7,017 bases of DNA from Desulfobacteraceae bacterium (GTDB lineage Bacteria; Desulfobacterota; Desulfobacteria; Desulfobacterales; Desulfobacteraceae): NCBI GenBank assembly GCA_023140455.1, contig JAGLLQ010000144.1:1-7017 (forward strand). The letters are read 5' to 3'. Of the stretch, positions 41 to 6,785 are shown piece after piece. The translations under genes and the position numbers were made by a program. Under the pieces are notes generated by a model, which worked only from the letters and a program-made list of their open reading frames with translations, was not told where the DNA came from and made no database searches. How positions within the stretch are numbered: the first letter of the stretch is position 1; the number at the start of each line of letters is the position of its first letter.

Positions 41-77
41 TTGACAAATAATTATAATATACTTATCATGTAATTAT
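41..77 (+). promoter_or_regulatory. Probable brnTA promoter with overlapping inverted repeat
   Basis: A perfect -35 box TTGACA (41-46) is followed after 17 bp by TATCAT (64-69), five of six matches to the -10 consensus. Transcription would start at or very near the ATG at 76, and no Shine-Dalgarno sequence is present, so brnT may be translated from a leaderless mRNA. A second hexamer, TATAAT at 53-58, lacks a good -35. ATAATTA (48-54) and TAATTAT (71-77) form an inverted repeat across the -10 box. It could be an operator for the BrnA-BrnT complex, which represses its own promoter in the Brucella system, but AT-rich repeats also arise by chance. Confidence 0.5.
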
Positions 78-369
78 GAATAAATTGATCTTCATTTGGG
101 ATGATGATAAAAATATATCAAACAAACGTAAGCATGATATTTCGTTTGAAGAAGCTCAAATTGTATTTTTTGATGAGAATGCTATTGAATTTGATGATCC
201 TGATCATTCTATCAATGAGGAAAGATTCATTCTTTTGGGTTTAAACCAAAGCCTTAAAGTTTTAGTTGTATGTCATTGCTATCGTAAAGATGATACTGAA
301 ATTAGAATTATCACAGCAAGGAAAGCAACTAAAAAGGAGCAAATAGTTTATTTCAGGAGGTTGTCATGA
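76..369 (+). CDS. brnT: BrnT family ribonuclease toxin (type II toxin-antitoxin)
   Basis: This 97-residue protein is a BrnT toxin, a small RelE-like ribonuclease that stops translation by cutting RNA until its antitoxin binds it. The family pattern is clear: a WD pair and Lys at residues 8-12, N16, KH at 19-20 and SFEEA at 23-27. A central acidic stretch leads into an HS..EERF segment, and the C terminus reads IRIITARKATKKE. Length and ends match the family, so the gene looks intact. The toxin precedes the antitoxin, the unusual order typical of brnTA, and the two genes overlap by four bases (ATGA), which implies coupled translation. No ribosome binding site precedes the ATG. The pair is the payload of an integron-type cassette. 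Toxicity here is inferred from the family. Confidence 0.93.
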   Translation: MNKLIFIWDDDKNISNKRKHDISFEEAQIVFFDENAIEFDDPDHSINEERFILLGLNQSLKVLVVCHCYRKDDTEIRIITARKATKKEQIVYFRRLS

Positions 370-584
370 GAAAAGAATATGATTTTGATAAAATGGTAGG
401 GAGGAGAAACCCTCATGCGAAAAATTTAAAAAAACAGATAACAATGCGTATGGGTGTTGATATTATAGAATATTTTAAAAATTTAGCTGAGGAAACAGGT
501 GTACCATATCAAAATTTAATTAATTTATATCTACGTGATTGTATTAAATCAAAAAGAAAACTTTCCCTAAATTGGACACCATAA
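366..584 (+). CDS. brnA: BrnA family antitoxin (ribbon-helix-helix)
   Basis: This 72-residue protein is the partner of the BrnT toxin: it binds and neutralises the toxin and, with it, normally represses the shared promoter. The N terminus has the family pattern D-F-D-K followed by RRNPHAKNLKKQ (13-24). The segment KKQITMRM (22-29) would be the DNA-binding beta strand of a ribbon-helix-helix fold. A helix with DIIEYFKNLAEETG and the conserved VPYQNLINLYLRDC follow. The start overlaps the brnT stop (ATGA), with an excellent ribosome binding site AGGAGG at 355-360, five bases upstream. This contrasts with the missing site before brnT and could favour antitoxin synthesis. The stop codon lies three bases before the attC-like site, the compact spacing typical of cassettes. 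Confidence 0.92.
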   Translation: MRKEYDFDKMVGRRNPHAKNLKKQITMRMGVDIIEYFKNLAEETGVPYQNLINLYLRDCIKSKRKLSLNWTP

Positions 585-2569: not shown

Positions 2570-3388
2570 ATGTCATTCATGCTTGAGAAGAAAAAAGAAT
2601 TTAAAATTACCATTGAAGTTGTTCCGCCTGAAGGAAAAATTGATACTTTGATGGCAGAATTGAAAAAAATATCTCATTTGCCCTTTGATGGATTTAGTGT
2701 GGCATCTAATCCTATTGCAAAGCCAAAGATGTCAGCAATGGTATTTGCTTATTTGTTGCAACAGCAAACAGGTAAACCAGCTATTTTACATTTTACTATC
2801 AGAGATCATAATATAATTGGACTGCAGGGAGAAATGTGGGGAGCAAAGGCATTGGGCCTTAAAACAGTTTTAGCAATGACAGGAGATCCTGCAAAAAAAA
2901 TAGAAGATCAGAAAAGTGTTTCAACTGTGGGTGATGTTAATGTATTTGAGCTGATAAAAATGTCCCGGGATTCAGGTCTGAGTACAGGTGCAGTCCTTGA
3001 TTATAAACCTGAAATCAATGGTCTGGACAATGAAATTAAAAGGCTTGAGAAAAAAGTGAATTCAGGTGCCGAGTTTATTGTTACACAACCCATATATGAT
3101 GAAGAAACAGCTCAAAAAATAGTGAAAACAATCAATCATTTTAAAGTTCCGGTGATAATGGGAATACTTCCTTTGCTCTCTTACAGACATGCTGAGTTCC
3201 TGCATAATAAAGTTGCAGGGATAGCAGTACCGGCAAAATTAAGAGATGAAATAAAAAAAGCAAAAGAACCGGTTAAACAGGGCATTGCCCAGGCAAAGAA
3301 GATATTAGATATTGCAAAAGATCAGTTTTCAGGCGCTTGTATAATGCCTCCTTTTGACAGGTTTGAAATACTTTCCGGAATTCTATAA
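2570..3388 (+). CDS. metF: Methylenetetrahydrofolate reductase family protein (short MetF type)
   Basis: This 272-residue protein is a MetF-family flavoenzyme, which reduces 5,10-methylene-tetrahydrofolate to 5-methyl-tetrahydrofolate for methionine synthesis or, in anaerobes, the methyl branch of the Wood-Ljungdahl pathway. The TIM-barrel landmarks are present: Glu16 in ITIEVVPP (the position of the catalytic Glu of E. coli MetF), HFTIRDHN (73-80), TGDP (103-106) and TQPIYD (171-176) with the substrate-contacting Gln. It is slightly shorter than E. coli MetF and resembles the reductase half of bifunctional homocysteine methyltransferase/reductase proteins. No metV or methionine gene is next to it, so which role it serves cannot be told from context. 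ATG at 2579 is an alternative start. It seems to form its own transcription unit. Confidence 0.82.
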   Translation: MSFMLEKKKEFKITIEVVPPEGKIDTLMAELKKISHLPFDGFSVASNPIAKPKMSAMVFAYLLQQQTGKPAILHFTIRDHNIIGLQGEMWGAKALGLKTVLAMTGDPAKKIEDQKSVSTVGDVNVFELIKMSRDSGLSTGAVLDYKPEINGLDNEIKRLEKKVNSGAEFIVTQPIYDEETAQKIVKTINHFKVPVIMGILPLLSYRHAEFLHNKVAGIAVPAKLRDEIKKAKEPVKQGIAQAKKILDIAKDQFSGACIMPPFDRFEILSGIL

Positions 3389-3402: not shown

Positions 3403-3422
3403 TTGACAATTATTTGTAATAT
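3403..3422 (+). promoter_or_regulatory. Candidate promoter of the aroF leader
   Basis: TTGACA at 3403-3408 is a perfect -35 hexamer just after metF. A -10 box is less clear: TAATAT (3417-3422) is a good match but only eight bases away, and the hexamer at the ideal 17-bp distance (TAAGAG, 3426-3431) is poor. If TAATAT is used with a weaker -35 upstream, the transcript would start near 3429, just before the leader peptide. The promoter is therefore placed only roughly. Confidence 0.35.
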
Positions 3423-3439
3423 GTGTAAGAGACTTTATT

Positions 3440-3568
3440 ATGGAATTTGGGAAGGCAGAAAATAACATTTATAAAGTGCAGGCTGAGAACAGTCTAACTG
3501 CTTCGTACTATTGGTGGTGGCGCTATTATTGGGTTTTTCGGAACACCTGCAGTCTGTTTTCTGTCTGA
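3440..3568 (+). CDS. Aromatic-rich leader peptide of the aroF-aroB attenuator
   Basis: A 42-codon reading frame (ATG 3440, TGA 3566-3568) starts MEFGKAENNIYK and contains the run SYYWWWRYYWVF at residues 22-33 (codons 3503-3538). Four Tyr, four Trp and one Phe thus fall within eleven residues, with another Phe at 40. Trp is among the rarest residues, so such a run in a short frame upstream of a DAHP synthase gene is very unlikely by chance. It is what leader peptides such as TrpL and PheL look like. AAGAGA (3427-3432) is a weak ribosome binding site seven bases from the ATG. The last codons lie inside the first arm of an RNA switch that ends in a terminator. The role is to make ribosomes pause when charged tRNA-Tyr or tRNA-Trp is scarce; the peptide itself needs no function. 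The function is inferred. Confidence 0.78.
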   Translation: MEFGKAENNIYKVQAENSLTASYYWWWRYYWVFRNTCSLFSV

Positions 3569-3664
3569 TATAGAAGTTAGAAATATAATTATAAGGGGCT
3601 GCAGGTTAAATCTTCAGCTCTTCTCGTTTTCAGGGTTGAAGAGAGAAATCTTCAGCCCTTTTTT
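3545..3664 (+). promoter_or_regulatory. Five-segment attenuator switch before aroF
   Basis: Five segments can pair in two exclusive ways. A (3545-3555) pairs with B (3596-3606) over 11 bp with two G-U pairs. C (3611-3620) pairs with D (3633-3642) over 10 bp with two G-U pairs. Together these leave the terminator arm E (3649-3658) free. Alternatively B pairs with C (3596-3605 with 3611-3620, one mismatch) and D with E, forming the terminator. Segment A lies inside the leader peptide frame, starting 12 bases after the last Trp codon (3530-3532). A ribosome stalled at the Tyr/Trp codons leaves A free and would allow read-through. One that reaches the stop codon (3566-3568) would cover most of A and would favour termination. 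C and E share the word TCTTCAGC, which is why D can choose either. Confidence 0.7.
3632..3664 (+). terminator. Intrinsic terminator (attenuator) upstream of aroF
   Basis: AGGGTTGAAGA (3632-3642) pairs with TCTTCAGCCCT (3649-3659), an 11-bp stem with a single G-U pair and a six-base loop GAGAAA. It is followed directly by a run of T (3659-3664). This is a textbook rho-independent terminator, yet it stands between the leader peptide and the aroF start, 58 bases upstream of the ATG, where only conditional use makes sense. Confidence 0.85.
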
Positions 3665-3721
3665 AATTGCTTAAATTAAGTATTAAAGATTACTTAAATT
3701 AAAGTAAATGGAGGAAATGTA

Positions 3722-4729
3722 ATGCTGGTAGTGATGAAAAAAGACGCAACTGAGGCTAATGTACAGGCTGTGGTTGATGCTGCTGAAAAACGAGGTTATG
3801 TTGCGCGCCCTATTCCCGGAGGAGACAGGGTTTCAATCGGGATTTTATATAATAAAGGTTCAGTGGATTCAGGTCTTTTTTTAGGGTTTGAAGATGTAAA
3901 AGAGGTTATTCCTGTTACAAAACCATATAAATTAGTCAGCCGGGAAATAAAAAAAGAAAATACTTTGATAAAAATTGGTAATGCTGTTTTTGGTGACGGG
4001 TCTTTGCCTGTTATAGCAGGGCCTTGTGCAATTGAAACTGAAGAACAGGCTCTTACAATTGCCAAAGTTGTTAAAGAGGCCGGAGCAGAACTTTTCAGAG
4101 GTGGTGCTTTTAAGCCGAGAACCTCACCCTATTCGTTTCAGGGGCTTGGAGAAGAAGGTCTTAAGATTCTTGCAAAAGTAAGAGAAGAAACAGGGCTACC
4201 TGTAGTAACTGAAGTTATGGATTGTGAAAATTTTTCCATAGTTGAAGAATATGCTGATGTTGTACAGATTGGAACCAGGAATATGCAAAACTACAGTCTT
4301 TTAAAACGGGCTGGTAAATCCCCCAGACCTGTTGTGCTAAAGAGAGGAATGTCAGCAACGCTTCAGGAATGGTTAATGGCAGCTGAATATATTATGGAAA
4401 ATGGTAATCATAATGTTATTCTTTGTGAAAGAGGGATTCGAACATTTGTTAAACATTCCAGAAATACTCTTGATCTTTCTGTAATTATGGCAGCAAAAAA
4501 AGAGAGTCATCTGCCTATTATAATTGATCCAAGCCATGCCGCAGGAGTTAGAGATCAGGTGATTCCTCTTGCCTGTGCATCTACTACGGTTGGTGCTGAC
4601 GGTCTTATGATTGAAGTCCATAATAAGCCAAAAGAAGCTTTGAGCGATGGAGCACAGTCTTTATATCCTGTTCAGTTTGAAGAATGTATGCACAAAGTCA
4701 GAAGCATTCATACTCTTATATCTAAATAG
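3722..4729 (+). CDS. aroF: 3-deoxy-7-phosphoheptulonate (DAHP) synthase with N-terminal ferredoxin-like domain
   Basis: This enzyme joins phosphoenolpyruvate and erythrose 4-phosphate to DAHP, the first step of the shikimate pathway to Phe, Tyr and Trp. The 335-residue chain has a ferredoxin-like domain at about 1-70, as in the Thermotoga maritima enzyme, where it mediates feedback inhibition by Tyr/Phe. A TIM barrel of the AroA/KDO8P-synthase type follows. Visible motifs are AGPCAIE with Cys102 (metal ligand), RGGAFKPRTSPYSFQG, QIGTRNMQN, LKRGMSAT, CERGIRTF, IIDPSHAAG (His ligand), MIEVH (Glu ligand) and ALSDG (Asp ligand). All active-site elements are intact. GGAGGA (3710-3715) is six bases from the ATG. 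The gene is preceded by the aromatic leader attenuator and followed after 24 bp by aroB. TTAAGTA (3676-3682) and TACTTAA (3691-3697) form a weak repeat upstream. Confidence 0.96.
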   Translation: MLVVMKKDATEANVQAVVDAAEKRGYVARPIPGGDRVSIGILYNKGSVDSGLFLGFEDVKEVIPVTKPYKLVSREIKKENTLIKIGNAVFGDGSLPVIAGPCAIETEEQALTIAKVVKEAGAELFRGGAFKPRTSPYSFQGLGEEGLKILAKVREETGLPVVTEVMDCENFSIVEEYADVVQIGTRNMQNYSLLKRAGKSPRPVVLKRGMSATLQEWLMAAEYIMENGNHNVILCERGIRTFVKHSRNTLDLSVIMAAKKESHLPIIIDPSHAAGVRDQVIPLACASTTVGADGLMIEVHNKPKEALSDGAQSLYPVQFEECMHKVRSIHTLISK

Positions 4730-4753: not shown

Positions 4754-5782
4754 ATGGAAACTTTCCATATACAGGCCGCAACAGGGAACTCAAGTATATA
4801 TATTGATGAGCGGCTTTCAAATGTGGACAAATATCTCCCTGATTGTAAAATAATTATTATTACTGATGAGAATGTAAAAAAGCATTATTTAGATGTTTTA
4901 CCGGATTTCCCTGTAATTACAATTTCCATGGGAGAATCCATTAAAACACTTGCCACTGTAGAATCAATTTACAGTCAGCTTATCGGTTTAGATTGCGACA
5001 GACAGACTTTTATACTTGCCATTGGCGGGGGTATTGTCTGTGATATCGCAGGATTTGTTGCATCAACATTTCAAAGAGGTTTGAGATTTGGATTTATTTC
5101 AACATCTCTTTTAAGCCAGGTTGATGCAAGTGTAGGTGGGAAAAACGGTGTCAATTTTGATTCCTATAAAAATATGGTAGGTGTGTTTATGCAGCCTGAG
5201 TTTGTTATCTGTGATATCAAATTATTAAACACACTGCCAAAAGAAGAAGTTGCCAATGGATTTGCAGAGATTGTAAAGCATGCATTAATTGAAGACTCTT
5301 TAATGTTTGATTTTATTGAGAAGAATAAAATAAAGGCATTGAACCTTGACCCTCAAGTTATTAAGAGGCTCGTGACAGATTCCATAAGAATTAAGTCAAA
5401 TGTTGTTCAGAAAGATGAAAAAGAATCTGGTGAGAGGCGTAAATTGAATTTTGGACATACTATAGGGCATGCCATAGAAAAAATTGCCCAGCCAGGACAT
5501 GGTAATGCAGTAAGTCTTGGAATAGTTGCAGCAGCAGAATTCTCATGCCTGAAAGGCTATATCTCAAAACAGGATCAAAAGAGAATAACCCAATTGCTTT
5601 ATGATCTTAATCTTCCTGTTACACACAATTATGAAATCCGGGATATTGTTGATGCATTAAAGGCTGATAAAAAAAGAGACGGAGATTATATCTATTTTGT
5701 TTTTCTTTCAAAAATTGGTCAAAGCATTATTGAGAAAGTAAGTTTTACTGAGATCACTGACTTTCTTTTCTCACAATCCTGA
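4754..5782 (+). CDS. aroB: 3-dehydroquinate synthase
   Basis: AroB turns DAHP into 3-dehydroquinate, the second step of the shikimate pathway, using NAD and a divalent metal, usually Zn or Co, in the cytoplasm. The 342-residue chain shows the NAD-binding GGGIVCDIAGF (91-101), RG at 108-109, the substrate loop SLLSQVDASVGGKNGVN (118-134) and KN at 139-140. Metal ligands are all present: Glu172 in GFAEIVKHALIED, His235 in NFGHTIGHAIE and His249 in PGHGNAV. Length is slightly below E. coli AroB (362), within the family range. It follows aroF by 24 bp with its own site AGGGA (4743-4747), so both should share the attenuator-controlled transcript and act in sequence on the same carbon flow. Its last 29 bases overlap the convergent gene on the other strand; no terminator is visible between them. 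Confidence 0.97.
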   Translation: METFHIQAATGNSSIYIDERLSNVDKYLPDCKIIIITDENVKKHYLDVLPDFPVITISMGESIKTLATVESIYSQLIGLDCDRQTFILAIGGGIVCDIAGFVASTFQRGLRFGFISTSLLSQVDASVGGKNGVNFDSYKNMVGVFMQPEFVICDIKLLNTLPKEEVANGFAEIVKHALIEDSLMFDFIEKNKIKALNLDPQVIKRLVTDSIRIKSNVVQKDEKESGERRKLNFGHTIGHAIEKIAQPGHGNAVSLGIVAAAEFSCLKGYISKQDQKRITQLLYDLNLPVTHNYEIRDIVDALKADKKRDGDYIYFVFLSKIGQSIIEKVSFTEITDFLFSQS

Positions 5783-6785
5783 AGCCTATATAATCTGTTT
5801 TCATAAATTTAACAGCTCCTTTACGGTAAGCGCATCTGAGATTTTCTATGTTGTCTGCAAAACTCCCGCCGCGAATTGTATGGCTTGACCCACCTTTTTT
5901 GTTTACAGGATTTAAATTTGCATGACCTGAATATGCATTTTTATCATACACATCTAAACACCATTCTGCCACATTACCGCCCATATCAAATAATTTAATT
6001 TTGTTTGAAGGAAAGCTTCCCACAGGAGCAGTTGAGCCATTGTATTGATCAGTTAAGCAGTTGCCACAGTTTGCCATATTTCCTGTTAAATTTTCATCCC
6101 ATGGAAAGGCATTCTTTTTGCCAAGGTTTCTGCATGCATATTCCCATTGAGCTTCTGAGGGCAGGCTGAATTCATATCTATGGGTAGTGGTTTTTGTGTT
6201 TAATCTGGAAATAAATCTCATGGTGTCCTCCCATGAAACATTTTCAACAGGATGGTTACTATTATAAAACCTTGAAGGATTTGTCCCCATAATTTTCTCA
6301 TATTCATTTTGAGTGATTTCATATTGCCCTATCCAGAATCCGGTCAGGCAGACTTTATGGGATGGAGCTTCTTTTTTCTTGCAGCCCATTGAAAAGCAGC
6401 CGGAAGGAATCCAGATAAATTTCATACCTGTTACAGGCTCTGTCCATACAGGTTTACGTTTTTTTCTAAATGGTTTTCTATTGCCTGGATTATTGTTCGG
6501 ATTGTCTGGAATTTTCCATAATTCAAGGTTCTCCCATACTTCCTGCGCTTCTGCTGAGCCGTTTTCATAAGCCTTTTGTATCCAGAATTTTGCCGTTGAC
6601 GGGTCTTTTAATACACCTTCCCCGTAGTAATATGCCTCGCCAAGTTCAAGCTGGGCATCAACATTGCCCCTTGCAGCTTGTTTTTTAAGTGTGAGGACGT
6701 CTGGATAGTCTGAGCCTGTGCAAATTGGGACGGCCAAAGGATTTACAAGTAAAATTAGAAAAACGAGAATCAAGATTCTTTTCAT
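5754..6785 (-). CDS. Exported Sel1-repeat protein with SUMF1/FGE-like domain
   Basis: The 343-residue product begins with a Sec signal peptide (MKR, then hydrophobic to about residue 20). One Sel1-type repeat follows (about 37-73: AARGNVDAQLELGEAYYYGEGV and the next helix), then a Pro/Asn/Lys-rich linker (about 93-112) and a formylglycine-generating-enzyme/SUMF1 domain to the end. Domain landmarks are GMKFIWIPSGCFSMG (120-134), GFWIGQYEITQNEYEKIMG, NHPVENVSWEDT, SLPSEAQWEYACR, GNVAEWCLD, RGGSF and YIGFRIV. The two cysteines that do catalysis in true formylglycine-generating enzymes, located after GGSY, are absent (GGSFADNIENLRCAYR has one Cys in another place). It is thus probably a non-catalytic binding or structural member, and no sulfatase gene is nearby. 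The ribosome binding site AAAGGAAAG reads on the minus strand at 6791-6799. Confidence 0.85.
   Translation of the reverse strand: MKRILILVFLILLVNPLAVPICTGSDYPDVLTLKKQAARGNVDAQLELGEAYYYGEGVLKDPSTAKFWIQKAYENGSAEAQEVWENLELWKIPDNPNNNPGNRKPFRKKRKPVWTEPVTGMKFIWIPSGCFSMGCKKKEAPSHKVCLTGFWIGQYEITQNEYEKIMGTNPSRFYNSNHPVENVSWEDTMRFISRLNTKTTTHRYEFSLPSEAQWEYACRNLGKKNAFPWDENLTGNMANCGNCLTDQYNGSTAPVGSFPSNKIKLFDMGGNVAEWCLDVYDKNAYSGHANLNPVNKKGGSSHTIRGGSFADNIENLRCAYRKGAVKFMKTDYIGFRIVRKESQ

What the first reader, a model, noticed from the sequence alone, without database searches (positions are those of the whole stretch)
3440..3568. Leader peptide with YYWWWRYYWVF upstream of aroF: attenuation by aromatic amino acids
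A 42-codon frame in the gap before the DAHP synthase gene packs four Tyr and four Trp codons into nine codons plus a Phe, and is followed by a terminator just before aroF. This is the hallmark of ribosome-mediated attenuation (TrpL, PheL). The mix of Tyr and Trp, and the control of aroF-aroB at the pathway entry, differ from the classical E. coli scheme, where DAHP synthase genes answer to TyrR and TrpR. I do not know of a described example with this leader, but cannot search.
Basis: partly seen in the sequence, partly recalled or inferred. Interest (0 to 1): 0.88.

Follow-up and report, generated by a model that had tools for sequence, protein, structure and literature searches.

The report
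Aromatic-sensing leader controls DAHP synthase
A short decoy reading frame packed with tyrosine and tryptophan codons sits in front of the first gene of aromatic amino acid synthesis in a sulfate-reducer-like bacterium, and comparison with relatives indicates that it switches the gene on when the ribosome runs short of those amino acids.

Summary
Window 3440-3568 encodes YYWWWRYYWVF, followed by two hairpins before aroF-aroB. A Trp-rich leader plus hairpin precedes aroF in 89 of 131 Desulfobacterales loci, against 3 reverse complements and a shuffle mean of 2.0. Leader tail and hairpin arms pair better within a locus than between loci, an arrangement like the his-operon relay.

Leader composition follows the controlled genes: Trp before trpE and in aroF-trpE operons; Trp plus Tyr/Phe before aroF-aroB (22 of 27 against 0 of 7); Phe before an aroF-pheA fusion (14 of 17); mostly Tyr and Phe, often with Trp, in another Thermodesulfobacteriota class (24 of 28, no shuffle control). 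The closest relative has a Trp, a Phe and a Phe/Tyr/Trp leader.

Attenuated DAHP synthase genes are known (C. glutamicum aroR, Acholeplasma). A Trp+Tyr(+Phe) leader and this division of the pathway turned up in none of ten paper searches; key subscription papers were not held. All evidence is comparative and in silico. Verdict: real; new variant of a known kind.

The parts
3403..3408 (+). TTGACA, putative -35 box; the -10 is weak (TAAGAG at 3426-3431), so a start only a few bases before the leader ATG is inferred
   Evidence: Sequence. In L019, L021, L022, L025 and L027 the same place reads TTGACA, then TATAAT 10-11 nt before the leader ATG
3440..3568 (+). Leader peptide ORF, 42 codons, no clear Shine-Dalgarno
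   Evidence: same length, start and stop in L001
3506..3538 (+). Regulatory codons: Tyr Tyr Trp Trp Trp Arg Tyr Tyr Trp Val Phe
   Evidence: comparative support
3545..3558 (+). Leader tail, segment 2 (like his segment B); pairs with 3593-3606 (predicted duplex energy -21.0 kcal/mol)
   Evidence: shuffles of the tail z -4.9, p 0.005; within-locus test over 73 loci
3594..3622 (+). Hairpin 1, segments 3 (3594-3606) and 4 (3610-3622), predicted -12.0 kcal/mol; its T tail is interrupted here (CTCGTTTT)
3611..3642 (+). Alternative pairing of segment 4 (3611-3621) with segment 5 (3632-3642), predicted -12.6 kcal/mol as a hairpin
3632..3664 (+). Hairpin 2, intrinsic terminator: segments 5 (3632-3642) and 6 (3649-3659) plus T run to 3664, predicted -17.6 kcal/mol. 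Segment 6 can also pair with segment 3 in one long stem 3593-3661
3722..4729 (+). aroF, DAHP synthase with N-terminal ferredoxin-like domain; SD-like GGAGG at 3710-3714 lies outside the hairpins
   Evidence: Pfam PF00793, PF18152
4754..5782 (+). aroB, 3-dehydroquinate synthase, 24 nt behind aroF
   Evidence: Pfam PF01761, PF24621

Best explanation
The region is a ribosome-mediated transcription attenuator of aroF-aroB that senses charged tRNA(Tyr) and tRNA(Trp) together, with Phe possibly marginal. When either is short, a ribosome stalls between 3506 and 3532. The leader tail (3545-3558) stays bare and pairs with the 5' arm of hairpin 1 (segment 3). Segment 4 then pairs with segment 5 before segment 6 is made, so the terminator does not form and aroF-aroB is transcribed. 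[quoted passage not shown] Segment 3 is then free to form a terminator, either as two hairpins (3:4 and 5:6) or, in this window, as one long stem (3:6 around 4:5), and transcription stops about 57 nt before aroF. Shown here, by comparison: the frame, the codon bias, the hairpins, the within-locus complementarity and the link between leader composition and downstream genes. Inferred: stalling, the folding order, and the response to amino acids.
For: Leader plus hairpin at 89 of 131 aroF loci, against 3 reverse complements and a shuffle mean of 2.0. At least 3 Trp in 8 codons at 75 of 131, against 2 and 1.9. Hairpin behind 73 of 75 such leaders, 18.4 expected. Leader tail with hairpin-1 arm: own mean -17.17, cross-locus -14.52, 0 of 5000 permutations as good, 73 loci; hairpin-1 3' arm with hairpin-2 5' arm: own -18.39, cross -14.95, 0 of 5000, 43 loci. 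F/Y just before the first Trp in 34 of 75 aroF leaders and 3 of 41 trpE leaders, p<=0.003 after dereplication. F/Y in or just before the Trp run in 22 of 27 aroF-aroB and 0 of 7 aroF-trpE leaders, p 1.5e-4. aroF-pheA fusions have RFFF leaders in 14 of 17. The peptide itself is free to change (5 synonymous, 19 non-synonymous codon changes against L001), as expected of a leader and not of an arrest peptide.
Against: No expression data. 42 of 131 loci lack a detected leader, including three close AroF relatives (L016, L017, L020). Five of 27 aroF-aroB leaders have no F/Y at the scored positions (L019, L021, L022, L057, L109). With the tail free, the full-length minimum-energy fold still contains hairpin 5:6, so antitermination needs folding in order of transcription. 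With the tail covered, the window's best fold is the long stem (-31.7), not the two hairpins (-29.6), though 36 of 43 two-hairpin loci fold as two hairpins. A locus's own partner is among its two best in only 8 of 73 (tail) and 5 of 43 (arms). Hairpins 1 and 2 resemble each other, so part of the 4:5 complementarity may reflect duplication. The window's -10 box is weak. Loci are not phylogenetically independent. The Phe codon at 3536 is close to the tail, so Phe sensing is doubtful here.
Confidence: 0.85

Rival explanations
1. A plain Trp attenuator, derived from a trp-operon leader; the Tyr and Phe codons are passengers.
For: Trp is the most constant codon; L019, L021 and L022, also aroF-aroB, have no F/Y at the scored positions; 34 of 41 trpE leaders in the order have the same pair of hairpins with complementary arms.
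Against: F/Y enrichment next to Trp is specific to aroF leaders, follows the downstream gene, and aroF leaders of another class are built mainly of Tyr and Phe (83 Tyr, 74 Phe, 24 Trp in 24 leaders).
Confidence: 0.12
2. The peptide is an arrest peptide that senses free aromatic amino acids in the exit tunnel (TnaC-like).
For: Aromatic-rich leader before an aromatic gene.
Against: The peptide is not conserved: 19 of 24 codon changes against L001 are non-synonymous, and residues around the core differ widely.
Confidence: 0.02
3. A chance ORF and an ordinary terminator behind the metF-like gene, with aroF served by a promoter of its own.
For: The metF-like gene lies upstream; no transcript start is mapped.
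Against: Recurrence at 89 of 131 loci and within-locus pairing.
Confidence: 0.01

Closest known systems
Salmonella his operon attenuator (passages read in PMC4046918)
   Same: Leader codons of the product amino acid; alternative pairings B:C and D:E against terminator E:F, the same relay logic
   Different: Aromatic amino acids instead of His; in many relatives hairpin 1 (C:D) is itself followed by a T run, so tandem terminators are possible; controls DAHP synthase
C. glutamicum aroR-aroF (Neshat 2014, seen only as described in passages of PMC11802643 and PMC4046766)
   Same: Leader peptide and attenuation before a DAHP synthase gene
   Different: Phe-Tyr-Phe codons, described as responding to Phe and not to Tyr; Actinobacteria; the passages name no Trp codons
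Acholeplasma uORFC-13-1 motif before aroF (PMC8632094, passages)
   Same: uORF and terminator before aroF
   Different: At least one Phe codon named, other structure; a prediction
trpL attenuators; here, the trpE leaders of the same order
   Same: Runs of Trp codons, pairs of hairpins with complementary arms
   Different: Flanking Tyr/Phe are rare
ilvGMEDA and thr leaders (multi-amino-acid content recalled)
   Same: One leader senses several amino acids
   Different: Branched-chain amino acids or Thr/Ile, not aromatic
Predicted attenuators before Vibrio DAHP synthase-tyrA and a D. vulgaris aromatic supraoperon (table in PMC1173090, passages)
   Same: Predicted attenuation of aromatic operons, one with a DAHP synthase, one in a sulfate reducer
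   Different: The passages give no leader peptide or codons

Membership tests
Ribosome-mediated transcription attenuator | Short leader ORF rich in codons for the pathway's product | tested here: met
Ribosome-mediated transcription attenuator | Intrinsic terminator between leader and first gene | tested here: met
   By sequence and prediction: (73 of 75)
Ribosome-mediated transcription attenuator | Competing antiterminator that involves the leader tail | tested here: met
   Predicted pairing; own against cross-locus; single-locus shuffles p<0.05 in 31 of 73
Ribosome-mediated transcription attenuator | Ribosome at the stop codon masks the antiterminator strand, a stalled one does not | tested here: inconclusive
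   Covers at least half of the strand in 61 of 73; last Trp at least 12 nt away in 65 of 73; the search zone favoured this result
Ribosome-mediated transcription attenuator | Expression answers to charged tRNA | not testable with these tools
   Needs reporter or RNA data
his-type relay attenuator | Two chained alternative pairings (B:C and D:E) against C:D and E:F | tested here: inconclusive
   Alternative pairings predicted in the window before segment 6 is made and complementary arms in 43 of 75 leaders with two close hairpins; but with the tail covered the window's best fold is a long stem 3:6 around 4:5
C. glutamicum aroR leader | Phe-Tyr-Phe regulatory codons | tested here: not met
   YYWWWRYYWVF
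T-box or other Rfam family (including Trp_leader) | Match at the gathering score | tested here: not met
   No match in the window; only matches far below gathering at E<=5; 18 related loci likewise
TnaC-like arrest peptide | Conserved peptide sequence | tested here: not met
   5 synonymous, 19 non-synonymous codon changes against L001

The most novel reading that the evidence does not exclude
In these Thermodesulfobacteriota the aromatic pathway is divided among leader peptides: a Trp leader for trpE, a Phe leader for an aroF-pheA fusion, and a leader that sums Tyr, Trp and in places Phe shortage for the aroF at the head of the common pathway. Such leaders would do by codon choice what TyrR and TrpR do for the three DAHP synthases of E. 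coli (recalled), with paired hairpins that could keep basal read-through low where no Trp repressor exists.
Probability: 0.55. Interest if true: 0.72.

Novelty: new variant of a known kind. Interest (0 to 1): 0.62.

Why it matters
It gives a natural series in which the codon content of a leader follows the products of the genes behind it (Trp, Phe, Tyr/Phe, all three), so one can ask how a single ribosome sums several signals and how DAHP synthase isozymes are divided among end products where a Trp repressor is rare: a Trp_repressor-family gene was found in 16 of 146 genomes of the order (15 over the cut-off), not in the closest relative G001 but in G002, which also has the leader. TyrR was not searched for. 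The leaders could also serve as multi-input sensors.

Tried and rejected
No genome is held for the window, so the genome of L001 (G001, AroF 91% identical) stood in. First scans of upstream regions read minus-strand loci the wrong way round and suggested that the closest relatives lack leaders; orientation was corrected, which then stopped with an error at a locus with only 35 nt upstream (L012). tyrA was checked as a place for a Tyr leader: none convincing in 22 loci (at best 5 aromatic of 10), with gene starts only guessed. An aromatic-only criterion is noisier than the Trp one: 85 of 131 real, 20 reverse complements, 11.25 in shuffles. Rfam gave only matches below gathering. Paper searches with no paper found. 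One energy (both terminators together) came out as an impossible structure with a one-base loop; redid it. Rows left out: L003-L007 and L009 (not Desulfobacterota); L008 and L012 treated apart; 4 of 135 loci with under 250 nt upstream; partial AroF hits G193 and G149 and hits beyond the list not fetched; 2 of 30 loci (L282, L283, partial matches) not counted. The strong-leader candidate of L093 has no hairpin behind it and may be chance.

Full report
Observation. The frame at 3440-3568 is real and in place: 42 codons with YYWWWRYYWVF at 3506-3538. No resampled window of 300 had a frame with at least 9 aromatic of 12 codons and at least 4 Trp; 8 of 300 had at least 9 aromatic. It is followed by hairpins at 3594-3622 and 3632-3659, the second with a six-base T run, then aroF and aroB. 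The region 3500-3670 folds better than all 200 of its shuffles (z -3.36).

Organism. No genome is held for the window. The nearest AroF found, 91% identical, is in a Desulfobacterales MAG (L001, genome G001). Its leader has the same length, start and stop and reads FYWQWHYYWFF in the core. Between the two leaders 5 codons changed synonymously and 19 non-synonymously, so the peptide is not conserved while the aromatic codons largely are.

Recurrence. A search of 291 genomes of the order found AroF-like matches in 280. I took 135 loci with AroF of the window's type, the window included; 131 have at least 250 nt upstream. A start-codon frame with at least 3 Trp in 8 codons is present in 75 of 131, against 2 in reverse complements and 1.9 on average in 20 dinucleotide shuffles; counting any aromatic codons gives 85, 20 and 11.25. 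A looser Trp test with a hairpin required gives 89 of 131, against 3 and 2.0 in 10 shuffles. The other 42 have no detected leader, among them L016, L017 and L020, whose AroF is 76-80% identical. Of the 75, 73 are followed by a terminator-like hairpin, 18.4 expected in shuffled spacers.

Structure. In the window the leader tail 3545-3558 can pair with 3593-3606 (duplex -21.0; p 0.005 against shuffled tails). As hairpins, hairpin 1 is -12.0, hairpin 2 -17.6 and the alternative 4:5 -12.6 kcal/mol. If the tail is free and segment 6 is not yet made, the best fold has both alternative pairings, 2:3 and 4:5; if the tail is covered at that point, hairpin 1 forms. At full length with the tail covered, the best fold is one long stem, segment 3 with segment 6 around 4:5 (-31.7); the two hairpins together are close behind (-29.6). 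In the family, 36 of 43 two-hairpin loci fold as two separate hairpins, 3 (window, L001, L021) as the long stem, 4 otherwise. Either way segment 3 is needed for the terminator and the tail competes for it. At full length with the tail free the best fold keeps hairpin 5:6, so antitermination needs folding during transcription.

Within-locus tests. Over 73 loci the tail pairs better with its own hairpin-1 arm than with those of other loci (-17.17 against -14.52, 0 of 5000 permutations), though the own arm is among the two best partners in only 8 of 73. In 43 loci with two close hairpins, hairpin-1 3' arm with hairpin-2 5' arm is -18.39 against -14.95, 0 of 5000; own partner among the two best in 5 of 43. 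Single-locus shuffles of the tail reach p<0.05 in 31 of 73. The logic resembles the his operon, B:C and D:E against E:F (PMC4046918, passages). A model paper proposes that the extra his hairpin lowers basal read-through (PMC1183508, passages).

Which amino acids. Of 50 trpE upstream regions from the order (30 best matches, 20 picked from genomes with aroF), 41 have a leader with at least 3 Trp in 8 codons; Phe or Tyr directly precedes the first Trp in 3 of 41, but in 34 of 75 aroF leaders (Fisher 1.9e-5; about 7% elsewhere in the peptides). After dereplication p stays at or below 0.003. The gene behind aroF was looked at in 72 loci; 41 have an AroB match. Of these, 27 have a strong Trp leader, and 22 of the 27 have Phe/Tyr in the Trp run or within two codons before it; in 7 loci with trpE directly behind aroF it is 0 of 7 (p 1.5e-4). 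The seven are perhaps four lineages (by eye). Of the 41 other strong leaders, with other or unknown genes behind, 28 have it. L019, L021, L022, L057 and L109 are aroF-aroB without it.

Other leaders. A second DAHP synthase is fused to prephenate dehydratase and an ACT domain (Pfam on the G001 protein); full-length matches occur in 17 of 23 genomes, which I had chosen partly for having it, and in two pieces in G177. It has an RFFF leader in 14 of 17 loci; Trp lies near the run in 1 and Tyr in 2. In the class of genome G292 (Thermodesulfobacteriota; 42 genomes) 24 of 28 aroF loci have leaders with at least 6 aromatic of 12, 23 with both Phe and Tyr and 16 with all three (no shuffle control was run there). 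Of four next genes there checked by Pfam, three are tyrA and one has no match. tyrA elsewhere in the order has no clear leader (22 loci). In G001 the three leaders read RWQCWR (trpE), IFSIERFFF (aroF-pheA) and FYWQWHYYWFF (aroF-aroB).

Reach of each codon. With a footprint of 12 nt ahead of the A-site codon (recalled), a ribosome stalled at 3506-3532 leaves 3545-3558 bare, one at the Phe codon 3536 covers part of it, and one at the stop covers it. Tyr and Trp are therefore the likely signals here and Phe is doubtful (inference). Over the family the last Trp is at least 12 nt from the tail pairing in 65 of 73 and the stop-codon ribosome covers at least half of it in 61 of 73, but the search zone favoured this.

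Other control. Trp_repressor-family genes were found in 16 of 146 genomes of the order, not in G001 but in G002. TyrR was not searched for. The SD of aroF lies outside the hairpins, so transcription termination is more likely than occlusion of the SD (inference).

What is known. DAHP synthase leaders exist: aroR of C. glutamicum, FYF, Phe-responsive (PMC11802643 and PMC4046766, passages), and an Acholeplasma uORF (PMC8632094, passages); a Shewanella survey lists aroF and aroH (PMC2659441, passages). A table of predicted attenuators includes Vibrio DAHP synthase-tyrA and a D. vulgaris aromatic supraoperon (PMC1173090, passages). Searches (listings; passages of 13 of the papers) showed no Trp+Tyr(+Phe) leader and no Desulfobacterales case; Vitreschak 2004 was not held, and Neshat 2014 and Panina 2001 were not read. 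Hence: a new variant of a known kind.

Noticed in passing
76-584 (+): BrnT toxin and BrnA/CopG antitoxin pair (Pfam), flanked by similar stretches ending in atcaactcggctgtt at 1-25 and 733-757 (seen by eye).
   Followed up: no
5754-6785 (-): Sel1 plus FGE-sulfatase domain protein convergent with aroB.
   Followed up: no
2570-3388 (+): MTHFR-like (metF) gene ends about 50 nt before the leader.
   Followed up: no
L012:604-2472 (-), L316-L333: DAHP synthase fused to prephenate dehydratase and ACT domain, with RFFF leaders in 14 of 17 loci.
   Followed up: partly
L048 and L069 (genome G109): Two aroF copies in one genome, each with its own aromatic leader.
   Followed up: no
genomes G084, G225, G234, G023, G121, G249, G273, G285, G291: trpE lies divergent from aroF, 626-1157 nt apart. 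In G084, G225 and G249 each gene has its own strong leader; in G285 the trpE does, while the aroF-side candidate (L093) has no hairpin.
   Followed up: partly
window 3403-3440; L019, L021, L022, L025, L027: TATAAT only 10-11 nt before the leader ATG in relatives: the leader peptide may be translated from a nearly leaderless mRNA.
   Followed up: no
L045, L059, L074, L078, L094: The gene behind aroF is a CinA-like gene in these genomes.
   Followed up: no
L192, L257-L285: Many leaders of the other class end in PPVG or a similar Pro-Gly tail, mostly with one strong hairpin behind.
   Followed up: partly
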